This document shows positions 5,286 to 31,959 of a stretch of 31,959 nt of DNA, piece after piece. This DNA comes from Gracilaria domingensis (taxonomy: Eukaryota > Rhodophyta > Florideophyceae > Gracilariales > Gracilariaceae). The position numbers and the translations under genes are program-made. The notes beneath the pieces were generated by a model. That model had not been told where the DNA came from. It did no database searches and worked only from the letters and a program-made list of their open reading frames with translations. The stretch spans positions 17,714 through 49,672 of the forward strand of contig VCMS01000433.1 in assembly GCA_022539475.1 (NCBI GenBank), in the 5' to 3' direction. How positions within the stretch are numbered: position 1 is the first letter of the stretch; each line of letters opens with the position of its first letter.

Positions 5286-5393
5286 GTTTTGAAAGCTTTC
5301 GAAAGGGTTCGTTTTGCAAATGGGTGTGGGTATACGAATGAGAAGGATGTGATTGATGTTCACAAGGTGTTTCGTAGTATAAAAAGAGTCTAA

Positions 5394-7520: not shown

Positions 7521-7591
7521 AGATAGTAGCATAAATTTATTGTTTATTACATTGTTACCTTTACGTGTTATCACGACTATATTCTCCGTCT

Positions 7592-7916: not shown

Positions 7917-8153
7917 AGGCGAGGTGGGTGGGGACTATGTGAAGAGGGGACAGAGAGATGGCGCTTAAATAGTGGAAGGTGCGGAGGTGTACAGTGGATG
8001 TTTTGGCGGGAAATGGGATGAGGGAAACAGGGACAATCATGGTGCTGGATATAGCCCGTGTGGTTGGACAGTGGGGGTGGACAGCACAGTTTAGCTCGAT
8101 TGCACTGTATCGCAGCGGAAACTTCGATCCAACTACTACTTCTTTTTCTGAAG

Positions 8154-9083: not shown

Positions 9084-9440
9084 AGCCGTTTTGGGGCGAG
9101 GCGGGTATACGAGAAGGGGGAGAGTTGTGCACCTGACTTCTACAAAATGAACGCGTGATGGGCGAGAAATGGGTAAATAGCGGGGGTGGTGTGGACTGGG
9201 AAGAAGTGATGGGATGATTGAGGTGGGATGAGTTGCGATTGGCATTGCAACATGGGAGAAAATGGAAACGCAAACTAGCACGAGTGCAGTTTTGAGAGAG
9301 GGTCGCGGAAAAGAGTGAATGGGACCATGCGGCGAAGTAGAACCTCTACAAAAACTAGGGGACCCAAGAACTAAACTGCGCGAGATGGAATTTAATATTC
9401 CAAAATTTCTTGATTTTTTGAGTGCCAGCCTCTGCTACCC
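9084..9440. other. Intergenic stretch upstream of the retrotransposon remnant
   Basis: There is no supported gene and no recognisable copy of the sequence downstream of the retrotransposon, so no 5' LTR is identifiable. The left junction of the truncated element lies somewhere between about 9340 and 9450. Confidence 0.4.
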
Positions 9441-12884: not shown

Positions 12885-13330
12885 TGTGCACGTCGATGGA
12901 CGGATGGTAAGCTCTTGCTGGTGAGCAGCGTCGCGACCAGCGAGAAACAACCGCTCTAACGCGGAACTGTGCTGTGTACGCCATCAGCCCCCTTTTGAGG
13001 GATCGGAATGAACACTCGAGAAGAGGAATGAATGTCTCGAACGAGAGGAGGGAACTCTCGTAGGGATCAACACTCTGGTGAGGAAGAAGAACCTCGAGAG
13101 AGAGAGAGAAGAAGAAGATAGATGTAGAATTTGGAAACCCCTGGAAGGGAGAATTTGGAAATCCTTGGAAAGGAAGATGAAGTGAAGAGAAGCATACAGA
13201 AGAATCTGGTTTAAGAAGAAGCACAGTTTTACTGATGCACTATTTATGATCTAACCCGCTACTCGGTACTTAGATCGCCAAGCCAGTATTACCACGGTCC
13301 ACTCTTCGTCTGTGTCTTGCAGATGCTAGT
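12885..13330. other. Sequence downstream of retrotransposon, possible 3' LTR (unproven)
   Basis: A purine-rich tract (about 13080-13190) with short internal duplications (GAATTTGGAAA twice, at about 13121 and 13151) follows the chromodomain. Position and length would suit a polypurine tract plus 3' LTR, but there is no 5' LTR in the window to compare, and TG...CA ends with a target-site duplication were not identified. Confidence 0.3.
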
Positions 13331-13889: not shown

Positions 13890-13890
13890 C

Positions 13891-14768
13891 CTGCACCTGC
13901 AACTCGTGAGCTACTTACGCATCAAAAGTCATTTACCTGTATACGCAAGCAGAAAGTATCCATAAGTTAGTCAATGGTCCGTTGGATACATTTGAAATGC
14001 GATGAAACCTACCATTGATAAAGCAAAACAGAAACGTTGCGCTAGAAAATTCGAAGGACCTAGTAACTCGCAAAATGAAGAAGAAGCAGGAAAGAGATCG
14101 GTTAGATTACCATCCCACCATCATCGTAAAGCGCGAAAGGTGTCGAAGCGAGAACTCACAACCAAGGACACCAAGAATGCCCAAGCAGCAAACATACCGC
14201 AAGATGCGATAAACGAGAGAGCAGCCTATGTCCCAACCAAGTACCAGAATCGCCTATCCCGAACAGCCAGAGATCGATCTTGAGATAGGAAATAAAAATG
14301 GTCGTTTACCTGTATACGCAAGCAGAAAGTATCCATAAGTTAGTCAATGCTACGTTTGAAATGCGATGGAACGTACAATTGATAAAGCAAAACAGAAAAG
14401 TTGCGCTAGAAAATTCGAGGGACCTAGTAACTCGCAAAAGGAAGAAGAAGAAGGAAAGGGATCGGTTACACTACCAGCAATCCATTCATCGTAAAACGCG
14501 AATGGTCTCGAAGCGAGAACTCACAAGCAACGACACCAAGAATGCCCATGCAGCAAATATACCGCAGTTCCCCCTAACATCCTGCACCTGCAACTCGTGA
14601 GCAACGTCCGCGTCAAAAGTCATTTTCCTGTAGACGTAAGCAGAAAATATCCATAAGTTAGTCAATGCTCCGTTGGATACATTTGAAATACGATGGAACG
14701 TATCATTGATAAAGCAAAACAGAAACGTCGCGCTAGAAAATTCGAGGGACCTAGTAACTCGCAAAAGT
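13891..14768. repeat. Three tandem copies of a ~190-400 bp unit
   Basis: The units begin at about 13891, 14293 and 14581. Shared blocks in order include TACGCAAGCAGAAAGTATCC, CCATAAGTTAGTCAATG, TTGATAAAGCAAAACAGAAA and GACCTAGTAACTCGCAAAA. Units 1 and 3 also start with the same CTGCACCTGCAACTCGTGAGC lead. Units 1 and 2 share a further block around GAACTCACAA...GACACCAAGAATGCCCA; unit 3 stops after the CGCAAAA block. Internal ORFs (up to 93 codons in unit 1) shift frame between units and show no protein-level conservation, so I regard the array as non-coding. Confidence 0.85.
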
Positions 14769-15302: not shown

Positions 15303-15343
15303 ACGTTATTTAAACTCAAAAAATATTCTCCGTTCTGAGCATG
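15303..15343 (+). promoter_or_regulatory. Putative core promoter of the transposase gene
   Basis: TTTAAA at 15309-15314 is followed by CTCCGTTCT at 15328-15336, just before an ATG. The same ATTTAAA box and CTCCGTT(C/G)T block occur in both arms of the mirrored promoter at 24410-25850, suggesting a shared core promoter/initiator design. Spacing between box and block differs (13 versus 7 bases). Confidence 0.45.
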
Positions 15344-15436
15344 ACGTCGATATTGACTGTCACTCGACCCCCTTCTCCCTTCGGACGACCTTCCCTTGCA
15401 GTGTTTGTCGTCGTTTCTCGTTCATTTCTTCTTCCC

Positions 15437-18400
15437 ATGGTCTACTACTGTACACATAAGAAGCGTGGGTGCCCCTTCGTTACTGGCCGAGGAGTCGTAT
15501 CTCTTCAACAGCATGTCAACCATTGCTCGTTTTGTCTGAAAGCAGCGCTGGAAGACGACAATAGCCGGCCCATTCGGAAAAGAAAGCGTCTCAAGCTTTC
15601 CGCGCCCGCGCCCGCATCTTCCGAAACGGTCACTGCCCCTTGTCGCCTTCCCGAGCCTCCGGTGTCCGAGGACATCGTCGACCCCACTCCGTGCGCCCCT
15701 TCCATTCCGGACACTTCGCATTGTGTTTCTCCTTCCCCGGGTCCCGCGTCATTAGAGCGACACGGAAGCAGTTCCCGCCCAGTGCCTTCTGAGGAGGCCC
15801 TCGGTGATTTGCATATGGATTATCTCACTGTTTGTCTGGCTTCAGTAGCTTCCAACCTTGGTCATCGTGAGGCGGACGAGCTAATTGGGCTACTTCGGGA
15901 CCCGCGATTCTCGCAAAAGCGATTCAACGAGACCATAACAAGTTCCAAGCGCTGTACAGAACTGAAGAACGCCATTTTCGAACGATACGTCTCAAAGGAC
16001 GGTTTCAATCGCAGAACTGTCTCGCCAGAAGGATGTAAGTTGAGCGCCACCCTCTACACGAGAGACCCCCTTCAGACACTTGTGAAACAGCTCCAGTTGG
16101 CTAACAACGAAAACACATTCTTCCACCCTATACCTCAGACCCACTCCACGAAAATATCTCACCCCATGTCCGGCTCTCTCGCAAGAGATGCCACCTCAAA
16201 ACTTAAGGAAATGGTCATGGACTCTTTGGATAGTAGAATAGTGTGGTACTCCCAAGAAATAAGTTACAGTGAATCTTTCGTAGGTCTTCTGCAGGTATAC
16301 AAGGATAAGTCTTCAACAACTCTAAAGCAAACATCGGTTACCGCCTATCCTCTTCACCTCATATTTCTCAACTTCTCCCACGAGCTACGCCGTAAGTGCA
16401 TCCGCGATGACCTCACAGTAGTGGCATACTTCCCTACCATACTGATCGAGGTTTCCGCATCTGAAGCAGACGCAATGCAATTCGTTTCTAGCAAGTCTCT
16501 ACGCGAGTCCAGGATGAAAATCCTTCAAGAATCTCTTCGTCAAGTCCTGGAGCCCATTCTAAATCTCACGCAGAAAGGTTTTCAGTTCATCGGGGAAGAC
16601 AAACTAAGTCGAGTGTGCCATCCTCTGCTTGCAAGTTATTGTGCGGATATTCCTGAGGCTAAGGAAATTCTGTCCATTCTTCATGGGACCAAAACGGAAA
16701 GCCCGTGTCATAGATGCAAAGCCCCTCGCTCATCTTTATGCAGTTCTATTCCCACCTCATTCAACGGACGTTCTCAAAAGCACACGAAAAGCATCCGAAA
16801 GACATACACAGCTATCTTGCAACATGCACAAAAAGACGAGGCGGAAAGACGTCCACGTCGTGCGAGGGAGAGGAGATCTCAAGCGGATACTCTGATGCGT
16901 TCAAATTCCATATCTCTCATTCCTTCGTTCCTCGAAACTTCCGTAAGCCTTGGAATGATCCCGGGATTGTCTCCATACAGTCTGTTCTCATTCGAACCAT
17001 TACACAACTTGCATCTCGGCATCTCGAAGCTGATAAAAACGGCCACAATCGAGAGACTGCAGTCAGACACCCTGTGCACCATAATAGGAACATCTGCATC
17101 GCGTTCATTTCGAACGATACGCACCCAACTCCTCAACCATGCAAACGCAATTCTAGCTGCCATAGAACGCGATTCTCCTGCCAAAGGTTTACATATCGAT
17201 TTCTCCACGCAGGAGAAAGGCAAATCTTTGAATGGTATCTTCACGAAAGACGGTCTCCGTGGAATGCTGGAGGCCAAAAACTACAAAGCACTTACATGGT
17301 CTTCCTCTTCATAGGAGCATTCTTTGACATATGCTGTGGAGAACAGGACGTTGCCCCAATCACAACCGTTTTCTCTCAGTACTCGGACTTGCTTTCGACC
17401 TTATTCAGATACAGTCGTGACCCGTATTGGACTGAAAGCTCTCTCCTGTGTCTTAGTTCGGAGATTGAAGCCTTCCAGCGTTCCGCAACAAAGACTCTGG
17501 TGGATTTTCATCCCTCCAGACTGGAAACTCTGAAGTTTCATCTTCTCGATCATCTCGTGGACGATATTCGCCGTCTGGGAAGTATCAAGTACTACGACGC
17601 AGGCATATACGAACATGCACACCTGCTATTTAAGAGACACTACAAAAAGACGTCCAGAAGAACAGCAACGGCTGTGGAGGAGACTATTCGCTCCATTGAG
17701 CACGGACATGTTAGAAAGCAATGGAATGGCAATACTCCTTACCAGCGTAATCCATGTTTACCAGGAACTTCCACACAGCTTCCTCGGTTTGCAATCAGAG
17801 GGCGTTCTTTCACTTTACGTGCTCTGCAACATTGTGTTTCAAGTATGTCCAGTTCAAAAACATGGACTGCTGTTAGAGAGATGTTCTCAAGTACGGAAAC
17901 AAGGTCGACTCTTGACCAAATTGGTGAACAGGCCCTTCCTCCTTTCCTCAGCCTCGTGAAAGAAGCACTGGATGAGCACTCTATTACATACTTCCCAGAA
18001 AAGACAAGGATAACTCTGGTGAATTCGGCCCTCGTGAAAGGCGGTTTCGTTCCGAATCTTGAACACTTCGATTCGTCTTCTAAGGCACTTAAGCTGGGAC
18101 GACCCAAATACCCCATCATCCAACGAGTCTTCGCTTCTCCAGCATTTGGTCCCAGTAAAAAGCCAAAGTTTTCCACTGTATTGGTAAGCGGAGAAGATTC
18201 AGAGACTTGGGTTGCCCAGGTAGTCGCTCTGATTCGAATATCTCTCCTTGATTTTCCACTTACCGCACCAGAGGTGGCTTTCGTCCGGTATTTCGAGGTT
18301 TTACCCCCCGCAACAAACATCGACCACATATTGAAATGCATATCATTACGGTGGGCTACAAACGATGAAAAGAACCACACTCTTCCGTTCTTTCTTCATT

Positions 18401-18612
18401 CGAAAGCGGAGACTATCGTAGAGTTAACTCTTTGGTACGGGATGGTTCCGGCTTCTGCACTACAGGGAACTGTCCATGTTGTTCGATCAAACTACCCTGC
18501 TCCACCTTTTTGTCCTCCACTTGAATGGTTTCAACACCGATTCTACATCAATCGATTCTATCATGATTCAGATGAAGGACCAACTGAGCACGTTCATCTT
18601 GTACAGCCTTAA
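15437..18612 (+). CDS. Plavaka/KDZ-like DDE transposase (one frameshift)
   Basis: Read in two frames: to about 17290 (the first ORF is open from 15341), then in the -1 frame to the TAA at 18610-18612, together ~1,058 codons. The N-terminus has a C-x6-C-x13-H-x3-C zinc finger, as in Plavaka-type transposases. A Pro/Ser linker follows. The catalytic part has YKDKSSTT (candidate first Asp, codon 16304) then AYPLHLIFLNFSHELRRK. A CHRC cysteine pair follows, then 'FEPLHNLHLGI' (second catalytic block, Glu at 16994 where most relatives have Asp), and finally YEHAHLLFKRHYKKTSRR. The enzyme would cut and reinsert the element's DNA. I start at the ATG at 15437, immediately before the zinc finger; 15341 is alternative. 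Its end overlaps the stop codon of the convergent gene. Confidence 0.78.
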
Positions 18613-21002
18613 ACATTAAGGGCTCCATCCTCTACATGTTCACCTTGTGGTGCCTTTTCTTGTGATCCTGTGCTACTTCCGAAATCGTTCATGTCCATTT
18701 CCTTGCCCATATCCCCTTCCTCGCATTCACCAACGAAACAATCTCTAATAGAACCCAATCTTCGGGTCACACTGTCGATAAAAAATTGTTCTTTCACAGT
18801 GAGGTAAAGTCTTCCGTTCGACGGCATTTGATATCCAAATGTAGCCTCTCTCATGTCATTATAAAGAACCTTAGTCCAATCTTCCGTTGTCGTTCCAAAA
18901 CTATGAAACTCGCTGGAATTGGTCCTCAAGAAACGTTGCCTAACATCCCCCAGGACATTCTTTAAACACAGAGGTAGCAGTTGGGCAAACTTCTTTGTAA
19001 ACAGTTTCTGTCTCTGGCCACCCCTTGACACATCCGTACTTAGAAGGCTCACAACCGTCAACACCCAAGCGTCCAAACGTGCGAGCAACAGTATTGTGCC
19101 ATCTAAAAAGGTGCCCGTATCCTTGTCTTCCACATTATACCCAATAAACTCCTTCAGTACTTGTACCCCGACACGGTTTCGGAAGAACAAGTCTTGATCT
19201 TCCGTCGGCATATCCTCGACATTGTCCGCATTGGAGTACTTTAGACGAACAAATGGGGCTTTTCACCACCATGAAGTGTTCGGTACACCATTTTCGTCAA
19301 GACGCAGTATGTTCTCCTGCGCTTCCTTCAACTGCATTGTGAGTTCGTCAGCATTCTCTTCTACCAGCTTTGTTCTTCTCCAAATCAGATCGTACCCCAG
19401 GAGCAGAAATAGTTTATCCCTCGTATTTCTCTTCCGAACGCCCACGACGTCACTCATGGTCTGCCGCATTCTCTGCCTAAGGCACATATCTGCACAAAGT
19501 TCCAGTATACACCTGTCGGAAAGAGATGCTTTTCTAATACCTTCCCAGCTCAACTCCTTCAACTCTCTTTCAACCATTTTCTTCAGCAAAGCATCTGGCC
19601 CCCCCTCTACCGACGGTGTGGACATGCCAAAACTGCCCACGAGCTCCACGGGGTTTTTAGGAACCATGTATGAACCACCTTCCTCCGGCTCAATAAGCCC
19701 TTCCCCACTCTCAGTTGCGTCTTCCACCTTTTCGGCACGGTTACCCCAATTTCGGGTGAGCGACTCACCTTCGAGCCATAGCTCAATTTTTTCTCTCCTT
19801 GCCAACGTCAGCATGTTGTGATACACTGCTCGAGCAACCCCTCGAAACTCGTCACACATCTCAATTTTATGGTTCTTTCGACCTGTCTGCCCAGGTTCAC
19901 CAGCACGTGTACTCCTATCTCCCTCCTGTTTCAGTGCCGCCCTTAGCCCTTCAATGACTAGATCCTTCTCGTCAAGCCTGTTTTTCAAAGCCGTACTCTG
20001 CTCTTGGGCGACCTTCACTAGAATACCCCGAACCATCAAGTCCTCTTGTAGCGTCTTAACCTTTTCTTTCAAGCAATTCAGTTCATGTAAAAGATTAAGT
20101 CTGTTCATAGACGTTGAATTCACACCAGTGTGGATATCTTCCGGTATTTCCGTAGCCTCTTCCGCGGCAGGCCCCGGTAATGCCGCAGGATTCGGTGTTA
20201 TTTCGTTTTCGGAACTATCCTCGTGTGCCATACCCTTAGACACGAGAGGCTGCAGGCGTTCTGTGTCCACCCTTGGCACGGCTCTCAGCTCCAACTCCCG
20301 TGTCTGTCCTCCTCCATGGCATGGTATATCAGATGAATTGGGCCTCGTACGAGCTGCAACAGCCCCCGTTCTGGAAAGAGGGGAAGGTCGAGGAGTAACT
20401 CGTCTATCAGTTGTCTCTCGATTTCTTATTGTCTTTCTTCCTTGTCCGGACCCATTGCGAGGCATGATACGATTCATAGCGGCCCCAGTTCTAGAAGACA
20501 GGGATGGACGTGACGATCTTAATATACTAGGGCTCTCACGACTTCTCGTCATTGTCCCTTGTTGTCCAGATCCACTGGGCGGCGTAACCCGCGCCCCAGT
20601 AGCTCCGGTCTTCGATATCGGCCGGGGACATGAAGGTTTTGGTGTCATACGAACCTCTTCAGTTCCAGTTGTCATGCCCTCCTGTCCTGACCCGCTGGGC
20701 CGAGTTACCTCATCTTCTTGAGGAGCAGAGACAGATGCACGATTTGCATTATCGGCAGTTGACGGCACGACATCGTTCGCTGATCCACGAATTCTTGACG
20801 CAATCCCGGAAGACGCTCCGCTGCGAGATTGGCGAGAGAGTACTGTAGAAAGACGCCCACTGACTGTCTCCTTCGTCGAGGACGACTTCCGTTTAGGAAG
20901 TGCGGTGCTTGTAGCCTGATTCGTATCATCCGATGCTCTTCTCTTCTTCTGTCCACTCTTGTTCCGCTGCGTACTATTTCGCTCTCTCGGCGTTATACCC
21001 AT
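18609..21002 (-). CDS. Coiled-coil protein with 40-residue repeats, transposon accessory gene (in-frame TGA)
   Basis: About 797 codons from the ATG at 21002 to the TAA at 18609-18611; an upstream ATG at 21077 would add a Pro-rich piece encoded by a poly-G tract. A TGA at 19263-19265 splits it into two ORFs, but both lie in the same frame. The N-terminus is basic (KKRRAS, PKRKSSS: likely nuclear). Three 39-40-residue repeats with GSGQ and (S/K)TGA marks span 20705-20349, with a degenerate fourth. A coiled coil follows (about 20100-19930), then a helical C-terminal domain I do not recognise. Its stop overlaps the transposase stop at the palindrome TTAA. The pairing recalls TnpA-like DNA-binding accessory proteins of CACTA elements, but there is no direct homology I can name. 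Confidence 0.6.
20349..20705 (-). repeat. Three 120-nt coding repeats (40 residues each)
   Basis: Units at 20705-20586, 20585-20466 and 20465-20349 encode segments beginning TRPSGSGQ, TPPSGSGQ and MPRNGSGQ. Each carries (S/K)TGA about ten residues from its end. A degenerate fourth unit starts at 20348. They lie in the coiled-coil accessory protein. Confidence 0.75.
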
Positions 21003-21255
21003 GTTGTGGAGATAAACAGGGTAATGAAACGAAATTGTTGCGGGGGGGAAGGGGTGAGGGGGGGGGTGGGGGTACATGGTTCAGATATTCCGGGAGACTC
21101 CGCAGTTTCTGCTTTTTAGGAATTTGAGGTGCCCAATGGGTCGCAAATACCGCCGTTACAGATGAAGAGCTTCAGTGTACATGTACAACAACGCGTATTG
21201 CAGGCAGCTGCAACACTCACAAGCATATTTACTTTCAATTCGGTACTGAACTCAT

Positions 21256-24200
21256 CTATTGCTCCAATGTCAGAGCCCAGTCCCAGGCGTACTGCTCTCC
21301 GTAGTTGAAATACAACTCTTCGCCCCTCTCAATATCTCTTACTGCTCTACAACGAAGTAGAGCATAGTTAGAAAGGTCGGACTTAAACTTTATCACGGAC
21401 TTCGCTTCCACCATCTGCACATTGGCACATTGAGTCCTGTTTGACCGGGGCTCCGATAAATCGGGATCCCCGGCATGATATCCGCCGTCGTTAATGTAGC
21501 CCCCGATACAAGAAGGCGCCGGTATAATGTACACTTCGCTCTCCTTTCTATCCTGAGCCTGTCCTGGTCTGTTTCTCAGGTGCAAAAAGTCCGTACCCGT
21601 CACAGTGACCATCATAGAAAACCACTTGTACCGCACTGGAGTTGCTCCGAGACAGCCACTTCCATACGCTAAGTGTCTTTCCTTCCGGTTCGTCAGATCC
21701 GTGTATACCAAAGTTCCATAAAAATGACAGATAGTTTCCCCAGCCAATATCTTATGTTCCGTGAACACCCCCATACCAGCACGGGGATGTCGAATCTTAG
21801 AAGATGCTACATGTAAGCGATAACGATTGGCTTCAACAGTCAACAGCATATGCATATCCATTAGATTCAGAGCTTCTCGGTACTTCTCCTCCCAAATATC
21901 TACAGTATGCTGTCCACACTTGTCGACAAAGTCCCAGTACTTCCAGTATCTTCCTAGGAACTGAGTAATATGTGCAGGCATCACTTGGTACTGGGCGTAA
22001 CCAAATGGAGCCTCCCAATCAAGCCGACCTCGGTCCCGATGTGGAACCCGTTCATAAGTCGTTGAAGCCGCATCCACCACCTCCTGTTCAACCAGGATGT
22101 CATTCTTCCTCCCGCGAATAACTTCGGCCATAAGAGTCGTTATATGGTGCTTCGCATGGCTGAAACATGGCCTATTCTTCTCGCACCCCAAGAACTTCCT
22201 ATGCTTTGTCAGCGATAGGCACGCCATACCCGTAGAAAAAGTTCCCGCGAACATGTCCATGACAAGATCACCCGGTCTTGTGAAGCGACATATCAACTCC
22301 TTCATAAACTCCCTCGACTTCCTGCTCCGGTCTTATATACTGCCCACCTGGTACTGAACTACCTGGCTCATGTACCTTCCATGTCAACCACTCCCCCGCT
22401 CTCGGTTTTGGCACCCGGTCAATTACATTCCTGTTAGCCGGGAAAGTAGAAGGAATGAAATTGTTCTCCTCAAATGGAGTAAGACTGGCTTTCTCGGATG
22501 GTCGCAACCCACGCTTCACCCCATGAACGGCGTACTCCGTTACGGGCTGTATCCCAAACTTCCGTGGATTCCCTCCAACATTACTTCGATCCCGGATGAA
22601 CACCAGTGGATTCGCATCCACTTTAAACGAAGGCATGAGTTCTGGTTTACCTTCGCTTCCAGCTTCATCTTTCGTACTCGCCGTTTACGAGAGTATCCTG
22701 TGCCAAACATGAAACTGTGCCATGGCACAGAATATAATGAAGTGCCCACCTGACTGAAGCGCGGAACTTATTAAGTCAGCCGTACGGATCATTTCATCCT
22801 CACTGAAGACATCGTGACCACTATTCCGTTTGTTCCTCTTCCTTCGAGTGTTAAAGGGAGGGTCTGTTAGGACAAGCTGTTTCTCACCCCATAAAATCTA
22901 ACTCTGATTCACAAACGTTTCGTGTGTGTGCCTCAGGTCCTTCGTGTCACAGTTGTACGCTACAAAGTGTGACTTTCTCATCCCCTTCCACACCTTGTCC
23001 ATATTCATTCGAAGGAGACTGGATATCCCCTTCATGGGCGGCTCAATACCAGTCTTTTGGATGTTGTAACCGGCAACCCGAGATTCATGCTCCGCAAGAT
23101 TCACCGGCTTCTCGAACTCGTCGCTATCGGAGCTCACGAGGTTCATATACTCTCGACGAGGTGGGGGTGGGGCAGACTTGGTCGAAGAAGGTTCGGCATT
23201 TCCGGAAGTTTTAGGGGTTTTCGTCAGTTCAATATCAGGTTTCGCGTGAATGCCGACATGGAACCCTGCCGCATGACGCATATCCTGTATCGGTTTCCAT
23301 AGCAACTCCGAAAACTTCTGAAATCGAGCAGGCAACTCACCGGAGTCAGAACCAGATACGGTATCCATCCGTATCTCCGAAAACTCTATCCAGTTCCTCA
23401 TCTGATCAGCCCGTAAGCTATAGAGGCTATCGTGGGTGCATACGGTTTCGAGGTCTGTCAAAAATTCCTTAGCCAGTATTCGGAGGTTTGTATCGCATTC
23501 ATCACTCAAGGTCTCCACCGATCCACTAGTACTGCTCTGTGGCACATCCTGTGTGTTGAATCGAGTACTCTGGCTCGGCGGGGCATAACCAGACTTTCGT
23601 GTCTCTAGCGCTGTATACTTCAACGTCTGCATATTCATGTAAATGTATGGTTTTACCATGTGCTGAACGTTCGTGTATCCAAGATGAGCCGCAAAACAAC
23701 TCCATGCCCGTACGACCTCACTGATAGCGAATCCCAGTCGATCACAGTTGTCTTTGGAGAACGACGTAAAAGTGGGTATGTACACAGATGGTGCATGGTT
23801 CACTTTTCGTTTCTTTTTCGGTTGTTTCTTCTTCATCATTCGGATGTTGTCGTTCTCTCCCATTATGTGGCAGAGGTATGATAAGTATATAACGACCTCA
23901 AATGGGTTCACAGCTGTTGGTGGGATGAACACTGTCGTCTTCAGAACCTGCTTTCTCCTGGTCATGAAATAACCAACCAGGCATCGCACCGGTAGGTATA
24001 TACCCATATCCATAGAGAGAAGGAGAAAATCGCGCAGTCTCTGGTCCTCATCCCCGTCCTTCTTGTCAAGAAGCTTCGTTACAATATATCGTTGTTCCAC
24101 AGGTTTGTTATTCACAACACTCTTTCGCAGCTGTTGCAGTGTCAAGTTCTGGAGGCTCTTGGAGTTAGTGGCCTCCTCAAACATCTTCCTTGCCTCCGGA

Positions 24201-24394
24201 ATATCCTTATAGTTCTCGGCGCAGAACTCTATTAGCCCTCTAAACCCCACGTCCCGTGGCCGATCAGGGCCTCCATCGCTGTTTGCCAAAGCATCGCGAA
24301 GAACCAAGAAAAGTCTGACATATGCATGGAACGCCGGAGGCGGAGCACTCATGTCGATAGGATGTATCTCCTCTCCATCATCGGTGGAATCCAT
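21256..24394 (-). CDS. DNA N6/N4-type methyltransferase fused to a SET domain (two in-frame stops, one frameshift)
   Basis: The frame opens at the ATG at 24394 with ~480 residues I do not recognise (helical, with a KKKQPKKKRKV basic cluster). It passes through TAG 22898-22900 into LVLTDPPFN (motif IV, 22850-22876), through TAA 22685-22687, then shifts frame near 22310-22335. It continues with GDLVMDMFAGTFSTG (motif I, AdoMet binding). Motif IV before motif I is the order of beta-class amino-methyltransferases acting on adenine N6 or cytosine N4. A SET domain follows (about 21800-21283): MGVFTEHKILAGE, GGYINDGG, RTQCANVQ and ELYFNYG. SET domains methylate lysines. The in-frame stops fit CAG/CAA to TAG/TAA changes, so this copy is decayed or read through. 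It is divergent from the ParB-dioxygenase gene. Confidence 0.78.
21283..21800 (-). other. SET domain
   Basis: The start motif 'AGMGVFTEHKILAGETICHFYG' is split here as GVFTEHKILAGE and ICHFYG. A central Asn-containing 'GGYINDGG' with downstream Cys (RTQCANVQ) occupies the place of the NH(S/C) pseudoknot motif. The terminal 'GEELYFNYG' matches the GEEL-x-(Y/F)-(D/N)-YG catalytic Tyr motif. It is complete and undamaged in this copy. Confidence 0.82.
22160..22895 (-). other. Beta-class DNA methyltransferase domain
   Basis: TDPPFN is followed by a 'KRNSGHDVFSEDEM' segment and 'GGHFIIFCAMAQFHVW', then by REFMKELICRFTRPGD in the shifted frame and the FAG motif with its T-x-x-T-G context. This is the usual target-side-first arrangement of N6-adenine methyltransferases of this class. 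Target base and sequence specificity cannot be read. The TAA and the frameshift fall inside the domain. Confidence 0.8.
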
Positions 24395-24409
24395 CGCTTC
24401 AGCGCAAAC

Positions 24410-24510
24410 AACGGAGGCGAGCCTTTAAATGGCGACTTACGCTGGGCAGCCCCGCTTTCGGCAGCTCCTCCCAGCGCACTGCCATTCTCGTCCGTGTCCG
24501 TGTCCGCTCG
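24410..24510 (-). promoter_or_regulatory. Mirrored promoter module, methyltransferase side
   Basis: The module reads on the minus strand towards the ATG at 24394. It includes GTCGCCATTTAAA with TTTAAA at 24424-24429, followed by GGCTCGCCTCCGTT. It is about 93% identical to the inverted copy at 25742-25848. TTTAAA ends 29 bases before the start codon, a plausible TATA-like position. Confidence 0.7.
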
Positions 24511-24645
24511 GTGCGATAGCGTCGCGTGTCGGCCACTTCGCGATTCGGAGCTATTGCAAAGGTCGCGTATTGTGCTAAAAGTCGCGGATCAAGTGGGTGT
24601 GAAGCGCTAGTTTTCTCTAGTTTGATATATGTGCACGGCGTGTGC

Positions 24646-25551
24646 AGCGAAATCACTGCCGGAAGTGCCGGAAGGAGTGTTTTGGGAGGTCTCCGAAGGG
24701 TGCCAGAATGTGGTCCGAACGTGCCCGCGGGCGGGGGGGGTCCGTCGTGTTAGGGTACCTACCCTAACACGACCGGACCCCCACGCCCGCGGGCATAAAA
24801 TCGCACATTTTTCAAAAAATCGCCCAAAACGTGCCCGCGGGCGGAGGGATCCGGTCGTGTTAGTGTAGGTACCCTAATACGACCGGACGCCCCCGCCCGC
24901 GGGCATAAAATCGCAAAATTTTCAAAAAATCGCCCAAAACGTGCCCGCGGGAGAGGGGGTCCGGTCGTGTTAGGGTACTTACCCTAACACGACCTAACCC
25001 TCCCGCCCGCGGGCACGTTCTGGCCACATTCTGGCACCCTCCGGAGACGTTCCAAAACACACCACCCGGCACTTCCTGTACCCAATGCGTCACCTCAGTG
25101 CACCATCCCGGAAACTAGGGAGTGTCTGGAGGGTGGAGAAGACGGGATGGTCACCTCAGTGCACCATCCCGGAAACTAGGGAGTGTCCGGAGGGTGGAGA
25201 TGACGGGATGGTGCACTGAGGTGACGCAGTGGGTACAGGAAGTGCCGGGTGGTGTGTTTTGGGAGGTCTCCGGAAGGTGCCAGAATGTGGCCAGAACGTT
25301 CCCGCGGGCGGGGGGGTCGGTCGTGTTAGGGTAGGTACTCTAACACGACCGGACCCCCCCGCCCGCCGGCATAAAATCGCACATTTTTCAAAAAATCGCC
25401 CGAAACGTGCCCGCGGGCGGGGGGGTCCGGTCGTGTTAGGGTACATACCCTAACACGACCGACCCCCCCCCCCGCCCGCGGGCACGTCCTGGCCCCATTC
25501 CGGCGCCTTCCCGGGACCTCCCAAAACACGCCGCCCCGCAGTGATTTCGCT
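24646..25551. repeat. Foldback/MITE-like element with five hairpins in the divergent promoter
   Basis: The outer ends are inverted repeats: AGCGAAATCACTGC at 24646-24659 and its complement at 25538-25551, extending into a GTGTTTTGGGAGGT block on both sides. Inside are five hairpins of ~70 bases (24723-24794, 24833-24904, 24943-25014, 25301-25370, 25409-25483). Each is GCCCGCGGGCGG...TCGTGTTAGGG at its tip, returning with CCCTAACACGA...CCGCCCGCGGGC. Linkers are ATAAAATCGCA...TTTTTCAAAAAATCGCCC. The centre (25050-25260) is another inverted repeat enclosing a direct repeat. The arrangement looks like two MITE-like copies, about 24646-25089 and 25225-25551, placed in tandem. Confidence 0.88.
25090..25210. 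repeat. 61/60-bp direct repeat at the centre of the foldback
   Basis: Units at 25090-25150 and 25151-25210 both start TCACCTCAGTGCACCATCCC and end GACGGGATGG, with few differences. Their ends are also mutually inverted (CACCTCAGTGCACC...GGTGCACTGAGGTG out to 25224). Confidence 0.9.
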
Positions 25552-25741
25552 ACACCCGGCCGCCGGTACGTTGGCGCCGCTGTCCACGTGTATTGGCGGG
25601 AGTAGGCTGTACATGAAAGTGAATGAGTGTACTCTTGACTACTATGCAAAGCATTTGAAGAGCATGATGAGAGAGCGCGACCATTGCTCGCGTGAGTCAT
25701 CATTGCGCGAACTCCACGACTCTAAAGCGTACAATCAGTGT

Positions 25742-25848
25742 GCGAGCGGCCACGGACAGGACACGGACGAGACTGGCAGTGCGCTGGGAGGAGCTGCCGA
25801 AAGCGGGGGTGCCCAGCGTAAGTCGCCATTTAAAAGCTCGCCTCCGTT
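25742..25848 (+). promoter_or_regulatory. Mirrored promoter module, ParB-dioxygenase side
   Basis: This is the inverted partner of 24410-24510, with TTTAAA at 25829-25834 and CTCCGTTCT at 25842-25850. Differences are a 5-base indel at its distal end and three substitutions. It lies 76 bases before the first ATG (25911) and 112 before the ATG at 25947. Confidence 0.7.
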
Positions 25849-25910
25849 CTTGTATCGTGTAGAGCAAGCGTATTGTTGATATAAACCTTTCACTGCAATA
25901 GCTGTTCAAC

Positions 25911-25943
25911 ATGAAACCAACTCGTGTTCGAAAGCGTACGTAA
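25911..25943 (+). other. Short upstream ORF or disrupted first codons of the ParB-dioxygenase gene
   Basis: ATG at 25911 opens ten codons ending in TAA at 25941-25943, in the same frame as the ORF starting at 25947. It is either a uORF controlling translation or the true gene start broken by one stop. GTACGT within it resembles a 5' splice site, but no matching acceptor stood out. Confidence 0.4.
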
Positions 25944-26404
25944 AGCATGACTCCTCGCACTCGGCGGAGCACTCGATCATTGCAAGGTGGAATGCGGGTT
26001 TCTCTGCAGATGGATATTGAGAATGAAGGAAAGGTGAAAGTCGGAGAAGCGTTGTTGCATGGAATTGGAAGTGTTCTACGCCGCGAGTTGCACGGGAAGC
26101 AATTGGACCCAGGTCTTGTGGTGGTTCATAATATTCTCATCAGTCGAAGCGGTCAGACGTTCTACCCTTACCGGGCGGAGGGCCTGGATCTTCCAAATAT
26201 ATCCAGGATCTCCGGACGGCCGCTCCTTGGGATGAGAAAATGATGGAACCGGTGGCAGCCAGCATTCCGGCGTCGAAGCGAGGAACGGTGAACGCTATGA
26301 GTGAGGTGATGACGCCACCAAGCCGCACGGAGCCAATTCGAAGTTCATCAACACCGAGAGGTAGCGCATCAGTAGCACCTCCGCGGGCAGGTCCGTCGTC
26401 TGTT

Positions 26405-26548
26405 ACGAAGCGGTCTATGGAGACGAGAGCATCCCCAGCTACGAAGCGGACAGGTCAAACAAAGTCTACCTCCGCTACGAAGCCCACTGCGTCGAAAAGG
26501 GCTTCTCCTGCGATGAATCAGACCGTCGACACAAGGGGATCTTCTGCG
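26405..26548 (+). repeat. Four 36-nt coding repeats (12 residues each)
   Basis: Successive units encode TKRSMETRASPA, TKRTGQTKSTSA, TKPTASKRASPA and MNQTVDTRGSSA, then a partial SKQTVQQG. The units are basic and Ser/Thr-rich, in the disordered N-terminus of the ParB-dioxygenase protein. They may bind nucleic acid or serve as phosphorylation sites (inference). Confidence 0.75.
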
Positions 26549-26839
26549 TCGAAACAGACGGTTCAGCAGGGGACGGCTGTGCAAGAGGAGGAAGATGAGA
26601 TCATGAAAGGTCCCCTTCCAGACGCGGATGCGCAATCCGCGCAAGGAGCTGGTCCATCTGTACCCCAAACTGCAGCAGAAACTGCGGAGCAGCAGGACGA
26701 TGACGTTGTGCTTCTGTCCGCAAGAATGGCACGTTCAAGTGTTTCTGGCGAGCGGTCTGGAACACAAGGGACACCTACTCGGAGCAAGACGTACAGACGA
26801 ATTCGTCCGAAGGTACCAAAGGTGAACCTCAATCAGTAC

Positions 26840-27330
26840 CGGATGGTTGTTGTTACTGTTGACATCACTCTGGTGGACACTGCGCCGAATTTACTCCGTG
26901 GAGTAAGTAAACGCCACGTTGAAGCCCTTGTGAAGAGTATGGAGGAGCGGGGGATATTGCAGTCGATGGGTTCTCCAGTGGTGGCCTTACAAGATGCTAC
27001 TACGGGAGAGAGGGATACTGACAAGGGACGCCTAACGAAGAAGTGCTTCATTGTAGATGGTTTGCATCGTCTGAAAGCTATGCAATATTTGGCAGCGACT
27101 GGTGCACCGAAGTGGAAGCGATTAGCCAAGTTTTGGCGTTGCAATCTGCTGATACGAAGAGATGAGAGGCGCATTGGGATGAAGGAATTGTTATGTGTTG
27201 CTTCGTACCTCAATGAGTCGACGAGTACCATGCGAAGGATGATGTTTGCAGACAAGATACACTCTATAGTTAGTGTGGTCGCCATTCTAATTGAAGATGT
27301 TGAGGGGATGACGCCGGCAGACGTGGATCC
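26840..27330 (+). other. ParB/Srx-like domain (copy 2, in one open frame)
   Basis: Here the whole domain is in a single frame: strand 'MVVVTVDITLVD', helix 'SKRHVEALVKSMEERGI', and the signature IVDGLHRLKAMQ, followed by a helix-rich tail containing 'ASYLNESTSTMRRM'. This copy is the better reference for domain searches than copy 1. Confidence 0.68.
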
Positions 27331-28779
27331 TGCAGAAGTGACAGAAGTGTTGAAGGAGAGCCAACTGATTGGGACTGTGCAAGAGCGTCAGTATCTGAGA
27401 ATGCCAATGTCGCCCTGCAACTCATGTCTCGTGAGGGAATGCTGGCCCATTTCGATGATATATGTGAGAGTGTGAGTGACATAGGTCTCACACATCTGTC
27501 CCATACTCCGCTATATGTTTTGGATGCCGAGGAGTTCTCCTTCATTCTTGATTGTCTTCAGATGTTTCTATTGAAGGGCAAGTCGACGAAGACAAAGCAA
27601 TGGAAAAGCTTTGAGGAGGTTCGAGTTTCTTTTATGATAGAGCAGTGTCTCTGTTCCACGCGGCTCGAGCAGTGAGGAATGAACTGAACGAGGAAGAGTC
27701 GATGGAAGTGTTCCTGAAACGCGAATCAGTCTGTCTGCTCCATCGAATGAAGATGACGTTGAAGACCCAGACAACAACGCAGCTGTGAATCAGTTCCTTT
27801 TGGGACAAGTTGTGAACTTCAATACATTGCCGCGTGTTCGGAGCAGGACGAACTCAATTAGAACTGCCACGACTTCCGTTCAGAATCGATTGCGGACGAT
27901 GCTCAAGGTAATTCCGCCCCCCGCACCAGTGAAGCAGTCCGTGACAAAGAGGAGGACTCCTGCTGCTGCTGCTGCAACATCTGCCAGTGAAGAAGGGGAG
28001 CCGCGAAGAAGTGCACGAGAACGGGCGCAGGTGAGTTATAGGGAAATTGAGCACGGCCGAAATCGAGGTGCCATAGAAGTTCTGGATAGCTCTGAAGAAG
28101 AACAGCGGGCTCCGCCGAGGAAGAAACGGAGAAAGACTTTCACACAACAGATGAGATCTACTCTGAACAGCATGACACCGGATGACCTGATGTCTCAACT
28201 AAATGAACATGTGCTGAGAGGAAGGTCGATGAAGGTTCAGTTCGTGGCATTGGGAGAGGGAGCGAATGCAGAGAACGCAGGCAGTTCTGCATTTGTGGAT
28301 GACGAAGAACTTCTTTTTGTGACAGTTTCACTGGTTGTCACCGTCGAGAAAGATGCTTCGCCAGACGATCAGCAAGAGACAGGTGGGGGGTCATTTGATG
28401 ACGAGTTACCTACAGCTCTTCCGGAATCTGAGGAGCACGGACTTGTTCGAGGAGACCCATATGATGGCCCACCGAACCCATCATGGTGCGGGTATGTCAG
28501 GCTGAGACCGCAGGAATGGCAAGGGAAGAACGTAATTGAGCACAAGGACCCCTGGCTCAGAGTCATTCACTTGCCGAAGGGACATAGGTCGGAGCTGCTA
28601 AGTGTCTCGAATCTCAGAGATGTACACCATCTTGTCTTTTGGCGCGCTGCAAGGGCTGAACATCGCCTACGGCGGAGACATTTGGTATGCAGTATCCCCG
28701 TACTCGACCGACAGGTATGGATGATGAAGAGGTGCTGTGGGTTGCTGCGAAGGAGCATGACAAATTTGGGCAAATGTTC

Positions 28780-29590
28780 TTCGCCCGAATGCAAGCTGAG
28801 CTAAGGCAGAATGGATATTGCGTGCTTGATGGCTTTGCGACGGATAATGGTGTCCCTAAATGGGAGGAGTTGGAAGAAGTTCGGGAGTTCGGAGATGTGT
28901 CGGGGAAGTTGGTGGACTTCTTCGAGAATGAGTATGGAGCGATGCCGGATATACGGAACGGAGAGGAACAGAAGTCGTTCGTTCAAATAATCAACGATGA
29001 CGAAGGATGGAAGGACGGTAGCGTTGGACCATTTGAGGGGAGAGTGATGTCTACACGTTGGGGTACGGTGGAGAAGCCGGAGGATAATGAGGAGCTCAGG
29101 TGGGTTGTAAGGTCGCGTGCTTTACTTGATGTTCGAATGGGTACAATTGCTGCGGCTTTGGGACTATGGGACAATGAAAGGGAAGCTGTGAAGATGTACA
29201 CTCCGAAAACTGGTGGTCGATTTCTGGGGACGACGAGAAAGTGCAAGCGCCAGACGCTGCACACCGACTTCAGTGGTCTGGTTACGAAGGAAACAATGAA
29301 TACTGGCAACCCCGGATACTTTGTAATGGCCTCTGGGAAAGAGGGCTTTCCTCTCTGGGTGAGCGCCGGAAGCCATCAACTGGTGGGGATGATCAACCAA
29401 CAGTTGCGAGTGATGTCGGAGGTGTATCCAGCGAAGAAGATAATCATCCCACCGTACTCTGTATTCTTGGGCCGTGGTGATGTGACACATGCTGGAGCAA
29501 GTGGGAAGGAAAGGTGCATAGGCCCGAGTCTATGGATTTGCTGGTTAGATACCACATGTACATGGTACCAGAGGGCTACGCACTACCTGA
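28780..29590 (+). other. 2OG-Fe(II) dioxygenase domain (copy 2)
   Basis: Same ligand set as copy 1 (HTD, GDVTH and the Arg in LLVRYH). A one-base loss near 29509 moves the last block, containing the Arg, into the frame of 29514-29822. Confidence 0.78.
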
Positions 29591-30136
29591 TGCTGTTCAT
29601 TGGGTGCGGGATTTCCGACCCACGTTTGTCATTGGTGACGAGGAGGAGGAGGCGGAGGATGAACTGTTGTCCGATAAGGAGGGTGGGGCGGTTGACATGG
29701 ACGAAGACCAAGTGGTCGTGGAGATTGGTGTGGAAGCGGACGCCGGTAGAACCGAAGTGCTCGAGAGTAGTAGTGATGACGATTTGCCAATAATGAGGCT
29801 GCGAGCGCCTCGAAGTGGATGAGAATGAGATGATTAGTAAATTATGTGTGTCTTGCCAGTATTAAGAGTAGTATACTATTACAAGGCTATACATATGAAC
29901 ATAGAAAAGGTGCGGCAGGCTGGTAATTGAACAAATTTCAAACGTCTTTGGTCCAGTTGCGTCTAATTAAACATGCCAAATGCTCGGTATCGTTAACATC
30001 ATTGGTGGCACCAGTCAATTCGCAATTGAACATGTAGCGTCCTAACATTTCTGAAACTGCACTTAAGGTTGCTTTTAAGAGAAGTATGAAACTGAGAAGT
30101 CTATACAGTTCCTGTCTATGCGGTACTTGTGGCAGT

Positions 30137-30994
30137 ATGGTGACTGTATCAGGAAAAATGGCAGAGGAACAGAGAGACTGGCGGAAATTTCACCAAATAC
30201 CTTGTCTAAGTTCATATATGCCAATGGTTACGGTATATTAAGTTCCGTTGATGGAACGTTGAGAAGAGAAGGAGAGTCAATTCCAGAAGAAGTTGTGAAG
30301 TGTATGAAGTTCATTGACGAACGTGTTGGTTTCGGACTTGTCACAGGGGGTGATGTGGGCGACGTGGAGGGGAAATGGAAGGACTCGGAGACTATAAGTT
30401 TGGTGTCTCGGCGAATCATGGAGCTTTCCTGCGTTTCTCTGACGAGAGGGAAATTAAGGGTGCATTCAATGATCACACCCTTGACCACACTGTTGACGGA
30501 CTACTGTTCCTGGCAAGGGATTTGAATAGGAGGCATGGTATTGTGAATGATGATGACAAGGGGTTCGTGGAGACAGAAGTGATAGTGGCCTTCCCAATTT
30601 CGTGTACAACAAACTGTGGCAGTGGAAAGAAGAAGTGGATTCTGCTATTGGGGACCTGTTGCAGAAGATGGATGCGTTTGTTATCTATCCCGGCGATAAA
30701 AGTTGCGAAATTGTGGACAAGCGATACACAAAAGGAAGCGGAGGAGAAAATCTTGTGGATAATGAACCGAGATTTATTGATACGGATGACGTCGTGACGT
30801 TCGGAAGTGCTTTGAGCGACGGGCCTTTGCATGAGGTAGGCGTGTACGGCGTTCACGTCAAAGAAGATTGTATCCCGGGTGGAGTACACAACCTGTTCGA
30901 AAGCGTGGAGGATGTACATTCGACAATTATGTTGGTGGCTCTGTTGTACGGCTACGAGGAAAAGCAGCACGATAAAAACCACCATGAATCATAA
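30137..30994 (+). pseudogene. HAD-like probable pseudoenzyme, copy 2 (frameshifted)
   Basis: Counterpart of 3505-4365. Single-base losses near 30178, 30375 and 30575 split it into three frames. It has the same SSVDGTL and VTGGD substitutions at the catalytic motifs as copy 1, confirming that loss of the nucleophile predates the duplication. Confidence 0.7.
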
Positions 30995-31046: not shown

Positions 31047-31917
31047 CTAAGTATTACAGGCATCGTAGCACTTGAAACAAATTCCAAGAGCATTTCTAAA
31101 CCATTGACACTTGCATTTTCTGTACCCGTACAGTTCTGCCACCCTTCTGATGGTCTCATGCACGTCCTCCACCCATCAACAAGATATGTTACCGCTGCTG
31201 GATGGTCTCTCCCTTCACATGAACTGCCAGGGTTGCCATTTCATATAGAGGGCCATCATTGGAAGCATTCCCGAAAGCAACGATTAAATGTGTGTCGAAC
31301 TGGGGGTCGTTTTCAACCAAGGCTAGCGCCCCACTATTTTTCGTGAAACGAATGTCCCCTATGTCACAGTTTTCATCTTGAGGGTACGCAACCAGGTTCG
31401 GAAAGGATGTCAACACTTTTGAAATACCGGAGTTAACTTCTGTTTTCCACTTCGACAGTCCATTGTACGTGAAGTTAGGGAGTCCACTGTCTTTTCTAGT
31501 GCTCACCACTGCTTGTTGACGCTCTTCGTGAAGTCCGTGCGATTCATTTAAGGAGAGTGCAAGTCTCTCAAGTTCGGCTGCACATCTTTCGTAGCCTTCC
31601 TGTCAAGGTCCTGATCAATTTCGGTACCATTGGATAATCTCACCCGTGCGCCTTGGTTTCCAGAGATGCCAAAAGTGTAGCCACCCAGGTGCTCCATGAA
31701 ACTCTCGGCATCCTCTATATCTCGCCCAGTAGCAATTCCGAAACCAACGCGTGCGTTGATGTACTTCATGCATTTGACTGTTTCGGCAGGAATGTTCTCC
31801 CCAGCTCTTTTCAGAGTACCGGTCAACATCACTAATCACGGCGTAGCCATTTTCGAATATTTCGTTAGCCAGCTGCTGAGGAGTTACTTCTTGGGCTCTA
31901 ACTTCTGAGTTATACAT
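31047..31917 (-). pseudogene. HAD phosphatase, catalytically complete paralogue, copy 2 (frameshifted)
   Basis: Counterpart of 4418-5285. It starts at the ATG at 31917 and ends at a TAG at 31047-31049. An extra G near 31821, just inside motif I, and losses near 31600 and 31175 disrupt it. The 5-base stretch missing from copy 1 is present here (RVRLSNGTEID is readable), so the two copies are damaged at different points. Confidence 0.68.
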
Positions 31918-31959
31918 GTTTTGAAAGCTTTCGAAAGGGTTCGTTTTGCAAATGGGTGG

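What the first reader, a model, noticed from the sequence alone, without database searches (positions are those of the whole stretch)
21256..29822. Divergent pair of fused chromatin/DNA-modifying genes carried next to a transposase
Two very long genes are transcribed away from each other from mirror-image promoters. One fuses a beta-class amino-methyltransferase (TDPPF, then FAG) to a SET domain; the other fuses a ParB/Srx-like domain to a 2OG-Fe(II) dioxygenase with a full HxD...H...R set. Methyl writer, histone-type methylase and oxygenase in one co-regulated cassette beside a Plavaka/KDZ-like transposase suggests a mobile system that marks or unmarks its own DNA or chromatin. TET/JBP dioxygenase genes linked to KDZ transposons are known in fungi, but this dioxygenase is not obviously TET/JBP and the partner set differs. 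The joint function is inference.
Basis: partly seen in the sequence, partly recalled or inferred. Interest (0 to 1): 0.88.

Follow-up and report, generated by a model that had tools for sequence, protein, structure and literature searches.

The report
Fungal transposon carrying epigenetic enzyme pair
A very abundant jumping gene in what looks like a fungus carries a pair of chromatin- and DNA-modifying proteins, a DNA-methylase joined to a histone-methylase-like part and a second protein that looks like a DNA-binding oxygenase, kept side by side in distantly related versions, which suggests that the element edits chemical marks on DNA to survive in its host.

Summary
The divergent gene pair is real and sits inside a 23.1-kb Plavaka transposon (window 13307 to 4.5 kb beyond the window end). 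Gene 1 fuses an amino-methyltransferase (PF01555, 4e-12) to a SET domain (PF00856, 1.7e-7). Gene 2 has a weakly supported ParB-like part and a C-terminus with conserved HxD...H...R; no profile supports the oxygenase and both structure predictions failed. The window copies are broken by stops and frame changes, but uninterrupted 1055-aa and 1308-aa frames exist elsewhere in the genome. The pair occurs in three families (gene-1 proteins 24-38% identical where compared). Of 51 gene-2 loci with a gene-1 hit within 8 kb, 48 are divergent and 3 tandem; 95 of 146 have none in capped lists. Inverted near-identical promoters face outward in 8 of 8 copies read, with palindromes between. The end sequences occur exactly 479 and 491 times. 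No C5-cytosine methylase match was found. Best reading (inferred): the element writes N-methyl base marks, probably 6mA, perhaps protein marks too, and oxidises or erases the DNA mark with the partner, to escape silencing. Transposons with TET/JBP or with SET are known; this combination was not found in nine library searches.

The parts
13305..13306 (.). TT, candidate 2-bp target-site duplication (TT also follows the right end, outside the window)
   Evidence: one copy only, so weak
13307..13323 (+). left terminal inverted repeat CGTCTGTGTCTTGCAGA; the right end (window coordinate 36446, C433:54159, outside the window) reads ...TTTGCAGAACACAGACG; 9 bp exact, 14 of 17 matching
   Evidence: exact left-end pattern 479 times, right-end pattern 491 times in the genome, 0 for reversed control patterns
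13890..14767 (.). subterminal direct repeats inside the left end
15314..18609 (+). Plavaka transposase gene, frame change at about 17,295 here; uninterrupted 1100-aa frame at C600:1463-4762
   Evidence: PF18759 2.2e-19, 1.7e-18 on the 1100-aa frame
18612..21216 (-). 868-aa protein of unknown function (frame at C600:4765-7368), coiled-coil-like by eye, no Pfam hit
21256..24394 (-). gene 1, amino-methyltransferase fused to SET; two in-frame stops (near 22,899 and 22,686) and a frame change near 22,320 here; 1055-aa frame uninterrupted in other copies
22170..22879 (-). N6_N4_Mtase domain (motif DPPF near 22,853-22,864, then FAG)
   Evidence: PF01555 4e-12 over residues 516-752 of an uninterrupted copy, mapped
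21298..21777 (-). SET domain
   Evidence: PF00856 1.7e-7 over residues 883-1042 of an uninterrupted copy, mapped
24410..24506 (-). promoter arm of gene 1
   Evidence: 96% inverted match to 25753-25848; similar arms in 8 of 8 copies read
24720..25490 (.). five palindromic units built on GTCGTGTTAGGGTA..TACCCTAACACGAC between the two promoters
   Evidence: 2-5 palindromes in each of 8 copies, in 1 of 160 mononucleotide shuffles
25753..25848 (+). promoter arm of gene 2, mirror image of 24410-24506
25911..29822 (+). gene 2, ParB-like plus HxD...H...R protein, broken here by stops and frame changes; 1308-aa frame uninterrupted at C81:165677-169600 and C296:12485-16408
26830..27110 (+). ParB-like region (VDGLHRLKA motif), approximate bounds
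   Evidence: PHROG ParB-like 0.0026; GmrSD_N 0.028; same region in family C 0.0017
29080..29650 (+). candidate 2OG-Fe(II) oxygenase core: HTD (H near 29,260), distal H near 29,488, R near 29,547; approximate bounds
   Evidence: conserved columns in families A, B, C, mapped; no HMM support
30038..30991 (+). HAD-family hydrolase gene carried by the element (broken frame here)
   Evidence: PF08282 0.0004, 20.6 bits against cut-off 20.9, on the C296 copy
31057..31959 (-). second HAD hydrolase gene, cut by the window end
   Evidence: PF08282 2.6e-10 on the C296 copy
1..9521 (+). right part of a second copy of the same element in the same orientation: gene 2, two HAD genes, a reductase-like gene (5885-7147, -), a 342-aa ORF (8055-9083) and the right terminus at 9521
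   Evidence: 1-5326 is 98% identical to 26619-31958, and 6358-9521 is 97.6% identical to 33276-36446

Best explanation
The pair is the epigenetic module of an autonomous Plavaka DNA transposon of about 23 kb. Gene 1 writes an N-methyl mark on DNA (6mA more likely than 4mC, from DPPF/EPPY rather than SPPY) and brings a SET domain that may methylate histones or other proteins at the same site. Gene 2 acts on DNA through a ParB-like part and uses a 2OG-Fe(II)-type centre to oxidise a methylated base, most simply removing the partner's mark. Both genes are fired from near-identical outward promoters around palindromic operator-like units, which gene 2 could bind to auto-regulate. The effect would be to set the chromatin state of the element's own copies, escaping silencing and timing transposition. 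Shown: the element and its ends, high number of end sequences, the MTase and SET domains, linkage of the two genes in three families, mirrored promoters. Inferred: mark chemistry, target, eraser role, palindrome binding, anti-silencing, that the element is autonomous.
For: Ends and size; of 8 end pairs 20.5-24.3 kb apart, 7 hold a listed hit to gene 1 or gene 2 and 2 hold both. Domains. Linkage: 51 of 146 gene-2 loci have an MTase/SET hit within 8 kb, 48 divergent and 3 tandem. Gene-1 loci with a listed Plavaka transposase within 10 kb: 24 of 137 in family A, 24 of these convergent; 15 of 39 in family B, 14 of these convergent. Deep conservation: gene 1 of A and C 24% identical, E=4e-79; oxygenase core A against B and C 42-48%, with HxD, H, R and GRGDVxHAG unchanged. 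Nine uninterrupted gene-1 frames: pooled dN/dS 0.39, MTase part 0.28, SET 0.34, N-terminal part 0.52. Promoters and palindromes. No PF00145 match in the genome while 10 of 14 controls ring, so an N-methyl mark is a more natural substrate than 5mC. Precedents seen: fungal CcTet demethylates 6mA (PMC13297926, passages), a ParB-adenine-methylase fusion (PMC5512222, passages), amino-MTase and SETDB1 in bdelloids (PMC8885841, passages).
Against: No HMM or structure supports the oxygenase fold; ParB is weak. The SET domain of family A reads YIND in 9 of 9 frames where the canonical motif (recalled) has Asn-His; family C has NH; so the family A SET may be altered. Motif IV of family C is EPPY, unusual (recalled); one of nine family A frames has FVG in place of FAG. 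Gene 2 shows little recent constraint: dN/dS about 0.86 between the two uninterrupted frames; against window copy B (residues 781-1308) about 0.35 for C81 and 0.94 for C296. 95 of 146 gene-2 loci lack a partner hit within 8 kb in capped lists; at 20 kb 4 further tandem and 3 convergent nearest hits appear; three loci (C20, C202, C120) show gene 2 near a Plavaka transposase without a listed methylase. One family B gene-1 locus (C505) has a transposase in the divergent direction. No methylation, expression or binding data exist here.
Confidence: 0.42

Rival explanations
1. The pair is a two-step base hypermodification system, not a writer and eraser: gene 1 methylates and gene 2 hydroxylates the methyl group, perhaps followed by the element's HAD and reductase-like genes, so that element DNA carries an unusual base that protects it.
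For: Writer and candidate oxygenase have near-identical promoters, odd for opposing enzymes; HAD hydrolases and a reductase-like gene travel in the same element. Phage cytosine hypermodification with MTase, TET/JBP and glycosyltransferases is described in PMC12730594 (passages).
Against: No glycosyltransferase or kinase among the eight ORFs scanned; no HAD or reductase match in 20 kb of the C382 relative; known N-methyl hydroxylation tends to end in demethylation (recalled).
Confidence: 0.15
2. Gene 1 acts mainly on chromatin or proteins: the SET part (or the fusion as a scaffold) counteracts host silencing, and the methylase and gene 2 are DNA-targeting parts with little or no modifying activity.
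For: SET genes carried by HarbingerS and MuDR are known (PMC12730594, passages); SET part dN/dS 0.34.
Against: The methylase part has the lowest dN/dS (0.28) and a near full-length PF01555 match with motifs I and IV; the SET motif is altered in family A.
Confidence: 0.15
3. Gene 2 is a DNA-acting regulator or nuclease (ParB/Srx type) with a cupin-like or decayed C-terminus, serving replication or transposition; no base oxidation takes place.
For: Only the ParB part has any HMM signal; ParB-superfamily DNases are described in PMC5512222 (passages); palindromes lie at its promoter.
Against: HxD, H and R lie in the most conserved stretch of the protein across three families.
Confidence: 0.18
4. 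Passenger genes with no benefit to the element: captured host or bacterial genes that hitch-hike.
For: Twelve of the 47 end pairs are 10.1-10.8 kb apart and hold no listed hit to the pair, yet multiplied; near-neutral dN/dS in gene 2.
Against: Retention of the pair in three families at 24-48% identity with catalytic residues kept; shorter copies can be non-autonomous.
Confidence: 0.1

Closest known systems
TET+ Plavaka transposons of Agaricomycetes (Kojima 2025, PMC12730594; outline with abstract, passages and section 3.2 seen)
   Same: Plavaka transposase plus a candidate DNA-base dioxygenase in one element
   Different: Dioxygenase here has no Tet_JBP match; MTase-SET and ParB-like parts are extra; termini CGTCTG..CAGACG are neither PlavakaA (TGT..ACA) nor PlavakaB (CATCA..TGATG)
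SET-carrying transposons (HarbingerS, MuDR of Phytophthora; cited in PMC12730594, passage only)
   Same: a DNA transposon that encodes a SET domain
   Different: other transposase superfamilies; in the passage seen the SET is not described as fused to a DNA methylase
Bdelloid rotifer N4CMT (PMC8885841, passages)
   Same: bacterial-type amino-methyltransferase in a eukaryote, linked to histone methylation
   Different: host gene that silences transposons, SPPY motif, chromodomain fusion; here carried by the transposon, DPPF, SET fusion
ParB-methylase of Bacillus cereus (Bce_0392; PMC5512222, passage)
   Same: ParB-type domain working with an adenine methylase
   Different: there one fused protein; here the ParB-like part is on the partner that carries the oxygenase motif
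CcTet 6mA demethylase of Coprinopsis (PMC13297926, passages)
   Same: fungal 2OG oxygenase acting on 6mA
   Different: TET family enzyme; no sequence relation shown here

Membership tests
Plavaka transposons | Plavaka transposase domain PF18759 | tested here: met
   2.2e-19 and 1.7e-18, over cut-off 26.3 bits
Plavaka transposons (lineages A and B of Kojima 2025) | termini TGT..ACA or CATCA..TGATG | tested here: not met
   termini are CGTCTG..CAGACG; so not filed in either lineage
Plavaka transposons | 2-3 bp target-site duplication | tested here: inconclusive
   TT/TT at the one copy with both ends in hand
KDZ transposons | Kyakuja, Dileera or Zisupton transposase | tested here: not met
   only PF18759 hit the transposase at E<=1 in Pfam-A; that Pfam-A holds KDZ models is recalled
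beta-class N6/N4 DNA methyltransferase | PF01555 domain, motif IV before motif I | tested here: met
   4e-12 over 2-214 of 221 positions; DPPF at 521-524, FAG at 725-727 (FVG in 1 of 9 frames); class rule recalled
beta-class N6/N4 DNA methyltransferase | methyl transfer to adenine N6 or cytosine N4 | not testable with these tools
   needs protein or base-modification data
SET lysine methyltransferase | PF00856 domain over cut-off | tested here: met
   1.7e-7, 32.1 bits against 22.4; family C 1.2e-7
SET lysine methyltransferase | Asn-His of the NHS motif (motif recalled) | tested here: not met
   family A reads YIND in 9 of 9 frames; family C YINH
2OG-Fe(II) oxygenase superfamily | HxD...H...R | tested here: met
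   unchanged in four sequences from families A (2), B (1), C (1)
2OG-Fe(II) oxygenase superfamily | profile or fold match | tested here: inconclusive
   no Pfam match at E<=10, PDB profile hits only at chance level; AlphaFold pLDDT 33 and 31
TET/JBP | PF12851 match | tested here: inconclusive
   no match in the genome at E<=0.001, but the control genomes gave none either; no Pfam-A hit of the core at E<=10
PhyH | PF05721 match | tested here: not met
   2 candidate loci in the genome, both matched, neither at a listed gene-2 place
ParB/Srx superfamily | ParBc or related profile | tested here: inconclusive
   PHROG ParB-like 0.0026, 0.0085 and 0.0017; GmrSD_N 0.028, below Pfam cut-off
Starship | tyrosine recombinase captain at one end (recalled) | tested here: inconclusive
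   no recombinase among the eight element ORFs scanned; the rest of the element was not scanned

The most novel reading that the evidence does not exclude
A eukaryotic DNA transposon carries a self-contained N-methyl base system: a fused DNA-amino-methyltransferase/SET writer and a ParB-guided 2OG eraser or oxidiser, co-expressed from mirror promoters with ParB-type palindromic operators, in a host with no detected C5-cytosine methylase. The module has persisted in at least three element families whose gene-1 proteins are 24-38% identical.
Probability: 0.33. Interest if true: 0.88.

Novelty: new variant of a known kind. Interest (0 to 1): 0.72.

Why it matters
Transposons that carry chromatin or base-modifying enzymes are described one enzyme at a time in what was seen here (TET/JBP, SET). 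In this case a DNA methylase fused to a SET domain and a candidate DNA oxidiser travel as one conserved pair with mirrored promoters, in an element whose end sequences occur nearly 500 times, in a genome with no C5-methylase match. It gives a testable eukaryotic case of mobile DNA that may manage its own N-methyl marks, and bears on the disputed question of 6mA/4mC in fungi.

Tried and rejected
KDZ assignment: rejected, only Plavaka matches. TET/JBP and PhyH: no match for gene 2. Structure prediction of the gene-2 C-terminus, alone and with a five-row alignment: pLDDT 31 and 33, unusable, so no fold search was made. Relatives in phages: none for gene 2; 279 phage records match the family C methylase-SET query at E<=1e-3, and the ten places shown cover only its methylase region. 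Viral contigs: 34 stretches matched a pattern, none a relative of the gene-2 core. PDB profile of the oxygenase core: chance-level hits, best E 0.33; PDB profile of the ParB region: none. Literature: nine searches, of which only listings were seen except for four papers read in passages (PMC12730594 also section 3.2), showed no paper on this combination; two papers likely to bear on it (Iyer et al. 2014 PNAS and 2016 BioEssays, recalled) are not held, so prior description there cannot be excluded.

Counts to read with care: one search used listed rows of capped searches (150 scored of 311 candidates; 82 of 744; 45 of 1067; 107 of 745; 69 of 701; 150 of 328). From I left out 13 of 150 rows (8 host-like SET loci, 3 on C382, C356, C3). 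One search used 91 of the 100 listed left ends (of 479) and 99 of the 100 listed right ends (of 491), and a hand-picked partial list of gene-1 and gene-2 places. Families A and B were not compared directly for gene 1.


Full report
What is there. The window lies at C433:17714-49672 of an unnamed 77.9-Mb genome in 680 contigs; a Plavaka transposase and Ty3-type remnants suggest a fungus (inference). The finding's coordinates hold two divergent genes. Gene 1 runs 24394->21256 on the minus strand, gene 2 runs 25911->29822 on the plus strand. In the window both are broken: gene 1 has two in-frame stops and one frame change, gene 2 aligns in pieces in three frames and has a stop near its start. Other copies are uninterrupted: a 1055-aa frame for gene 1 in at least eight copies and a 1308-aa frame for gene 2 at C81 and C296.

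The element. Comparing the window with other copies and reading the borders defines an element from window 13307 to coordinate 36446 (C433:54159), 23,140 bp including 1,316 masked bases. It starts CGTCTGTGTCTTGCAGA and ends TTTGCAGAACACAGACG; TT stands on both sides. The exact left-end pattern occurs 479 times and the right-end pattern 491 times in the genome, with 0 for reversed control patterns. Pairing part of the listed ends gave 47 candidate elements under 40 kb: 12 of 10.1-10.8 kb hold no listed hit to the pair; of 8 between 20.5 and 24.3 kb, 7 hold a listed hit to gene 1 or gene 2 and 2 hold both. Gene order in the window copy: transposase (+), 868-aa unknown protein (-), gene 1 (-), gene 2 (+), HAD hydrolase (+), HAD hydrolase (-), reductase-like protein (-), 342-aa ORF (+). 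The HAD genes are present in C81, C164, C257, C296 and in part C600; the reductase-like gene in C81, C257, C296 and beyond the window end.

Domains. In an uninterrupted gene 1, Pfam finds N6_N4_Mtase (4e-12) and SET (1.7e-7), both over cut-off; the best PDB sequence matches of the methylase are DpnA (1.2e-5) and CcrM (6e-4). The N-terminal 470 residues match nothing in Pfam. Gene 2 has no Pfam hit over cut-off. A region near residues 312-400 with a VDGLHR motif resembles ParB-like proteins weakly in family A and, independently, in family C. The C-terminal 200 residues carry HTD, GSH, GRGDVxHAG and RYH, unchanged in the four sequences read from families A, B and C. This pattern fits a 2OG-Fe(II) oxygenase, but no profile or structure confirms it.

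Conservation of the pair. Searches of the genome with family C proteins and Pfam models showed three families. Family A is the window's. Family B has the same divergent order at C442, C434, C161, C293 and C42 (6.17-6.18 kb apart), and 14 of the 15 family B gene-1 loci with a listed transposase within 10 kb (of 39) are convergent with it, as are 24 of 24 in family A (of 137). Family C, three copies on contig C382, has gene 2 then gene 1 in tandem and no Plavaka match in the list; gene 1 is 24% identical to family A (E=4e-79) and the gene-2 pieces 24-38%; family B gene 1 is 33-38% identical to family C. Over the listed loci, 51 of 146 gene-2 places have a gene-1 hit within 8 kb: 48 divergent, 3 tandem (the C382 copies). 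Within 20 kb it is 60: 50 divergent, 7 tandem, 3 convergent. The rest have no hit in capped lists; some lie at contig ends (at least 11 of the first 82). Three gene-2 places (C20, C202, C120) lie 5.5-5.9 kb from a Plavaka transposase on the same strand with no listed methylase hit near, so some elements may lack gene 1.

Promoters. Arms of 55-87 bp in front of the two genes are inverted copies of each other, 94-100% identical, in 8 of 8 copies examined. Between them lie 2-5 palindromes with arms of 20 or more (up to 5 mismatches) built on GTCGTGTTAGGGTA; 1 of 160 mononucleotide shuffles gave such a palindrome. Shared control is therefore likely; binding by the ParB-like part is my inference.

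Selection. Among nine uninterrupted gene-1 frames the pooled dN/dS is 0.39, with 0.28 in the methylase, 0.34 in SET and 0.52 in the N-terminal part; the pairs are not independent. For gene 2, the two uninterrupted frames give about 0.86 (70 non-synonymous, 25 synonymous differences), and against window copy B (residues 781-1308) C81 gives about 0.35 and C296 about 0.94. Recent constraint on gene 2 is therefore not shown, although the catalytic columns are kept between families.

Host context. No PF00145 (C5-cytosine methylase) match was found by six-frame search, while 10 of 14 control genomes rang; no Tet_JBP match was found, but its controls were silent too. The PhyH search finds two loci in this genome and the SET search several host-like loci, so such searches work on it. 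Introns, masked stretches or gaps could still hide a gene, and the controls are prokaryotes.

Mechanism. Most likely the pair lets the element write and remove or oxidise an N-methyl base, with the SET part adding or reading a protein mark. DPPF and EPPY point to adenine rather than cytosine (SPPY is the N4C motif in PMC8885841, passage). Rivals are a hypermodification pathway, a mainly chromatin-acting gene 1, a non-oxygenase gene 2, and passengers. The altered YIND motif of family A is a warning that its SET part may not be a normal enzyme.

Known and new. Plavaka elements with TET/JBP dioxygenases, and SET genes in other transposons, are in print (PMC12730594: outline with abstract, passages and section 3.2 seen). 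A 2026 review of fungal 5mC and 6mA (PMC13297926, passages) mentions transposon-encoded TET/JBP but, in the passages seen, not this pair. Nine searches of the library showed no description of an MTase-SET fusion with a ParB-like oxygenase in a transposon; two likely earlier papers are not held. I therefore call it a new variant of a known kind.

Noticed in passing
window 1-9521 and 13307-31959 (on to 36446): Two copies of the same element lie in the same orientation 3.8 kb apart; a Ty3-type remnant (RNase H, integrase at 9422-10873) lies between them.
   Followed up: partly
window 3421-5483, 5885-7147, 30038-31959: Two HAD hydrolase genes and a reductase-like gene travel inside the transposon next to the pair; reductase similarity is by eye and a sub-threshold NCBIfam hit (0.24).
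   Followed up: partly
G000:C382 (L026, L027, L033, L034): Three near-identical copies of a distant tandem version of the pair on one 115-kb contig, with three further unknown genes (615, 483, 1051 aa) and no transposase match among the ORFs scanned.
   Followed up: partly
whole genome: No C5-cytosine methylase (PF00145) match in six frames, which seems unusual for a repeat-rich fungal genome.
   Followed up: partly
G000, ends listed: A 10.1-10.8 kb size class with the same termini, perhaps deletion derivatives; at least one holds a transposase match (C8:200166) but no listed pair genes.
   Followed up: partly
C20:221068, C202:70272, C120:114997: Gene-2 homologues 5.5-5.9 kb from a Plavaka transposase on the same strand with no listed methylase hit nearby; perhaps a fourth family.
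   Followed up: no
window 24720-25490: The palindromic units contain TTAGGG-like strings; whether chance or related to telomere-binding factors was not examined.
   Followed up: no
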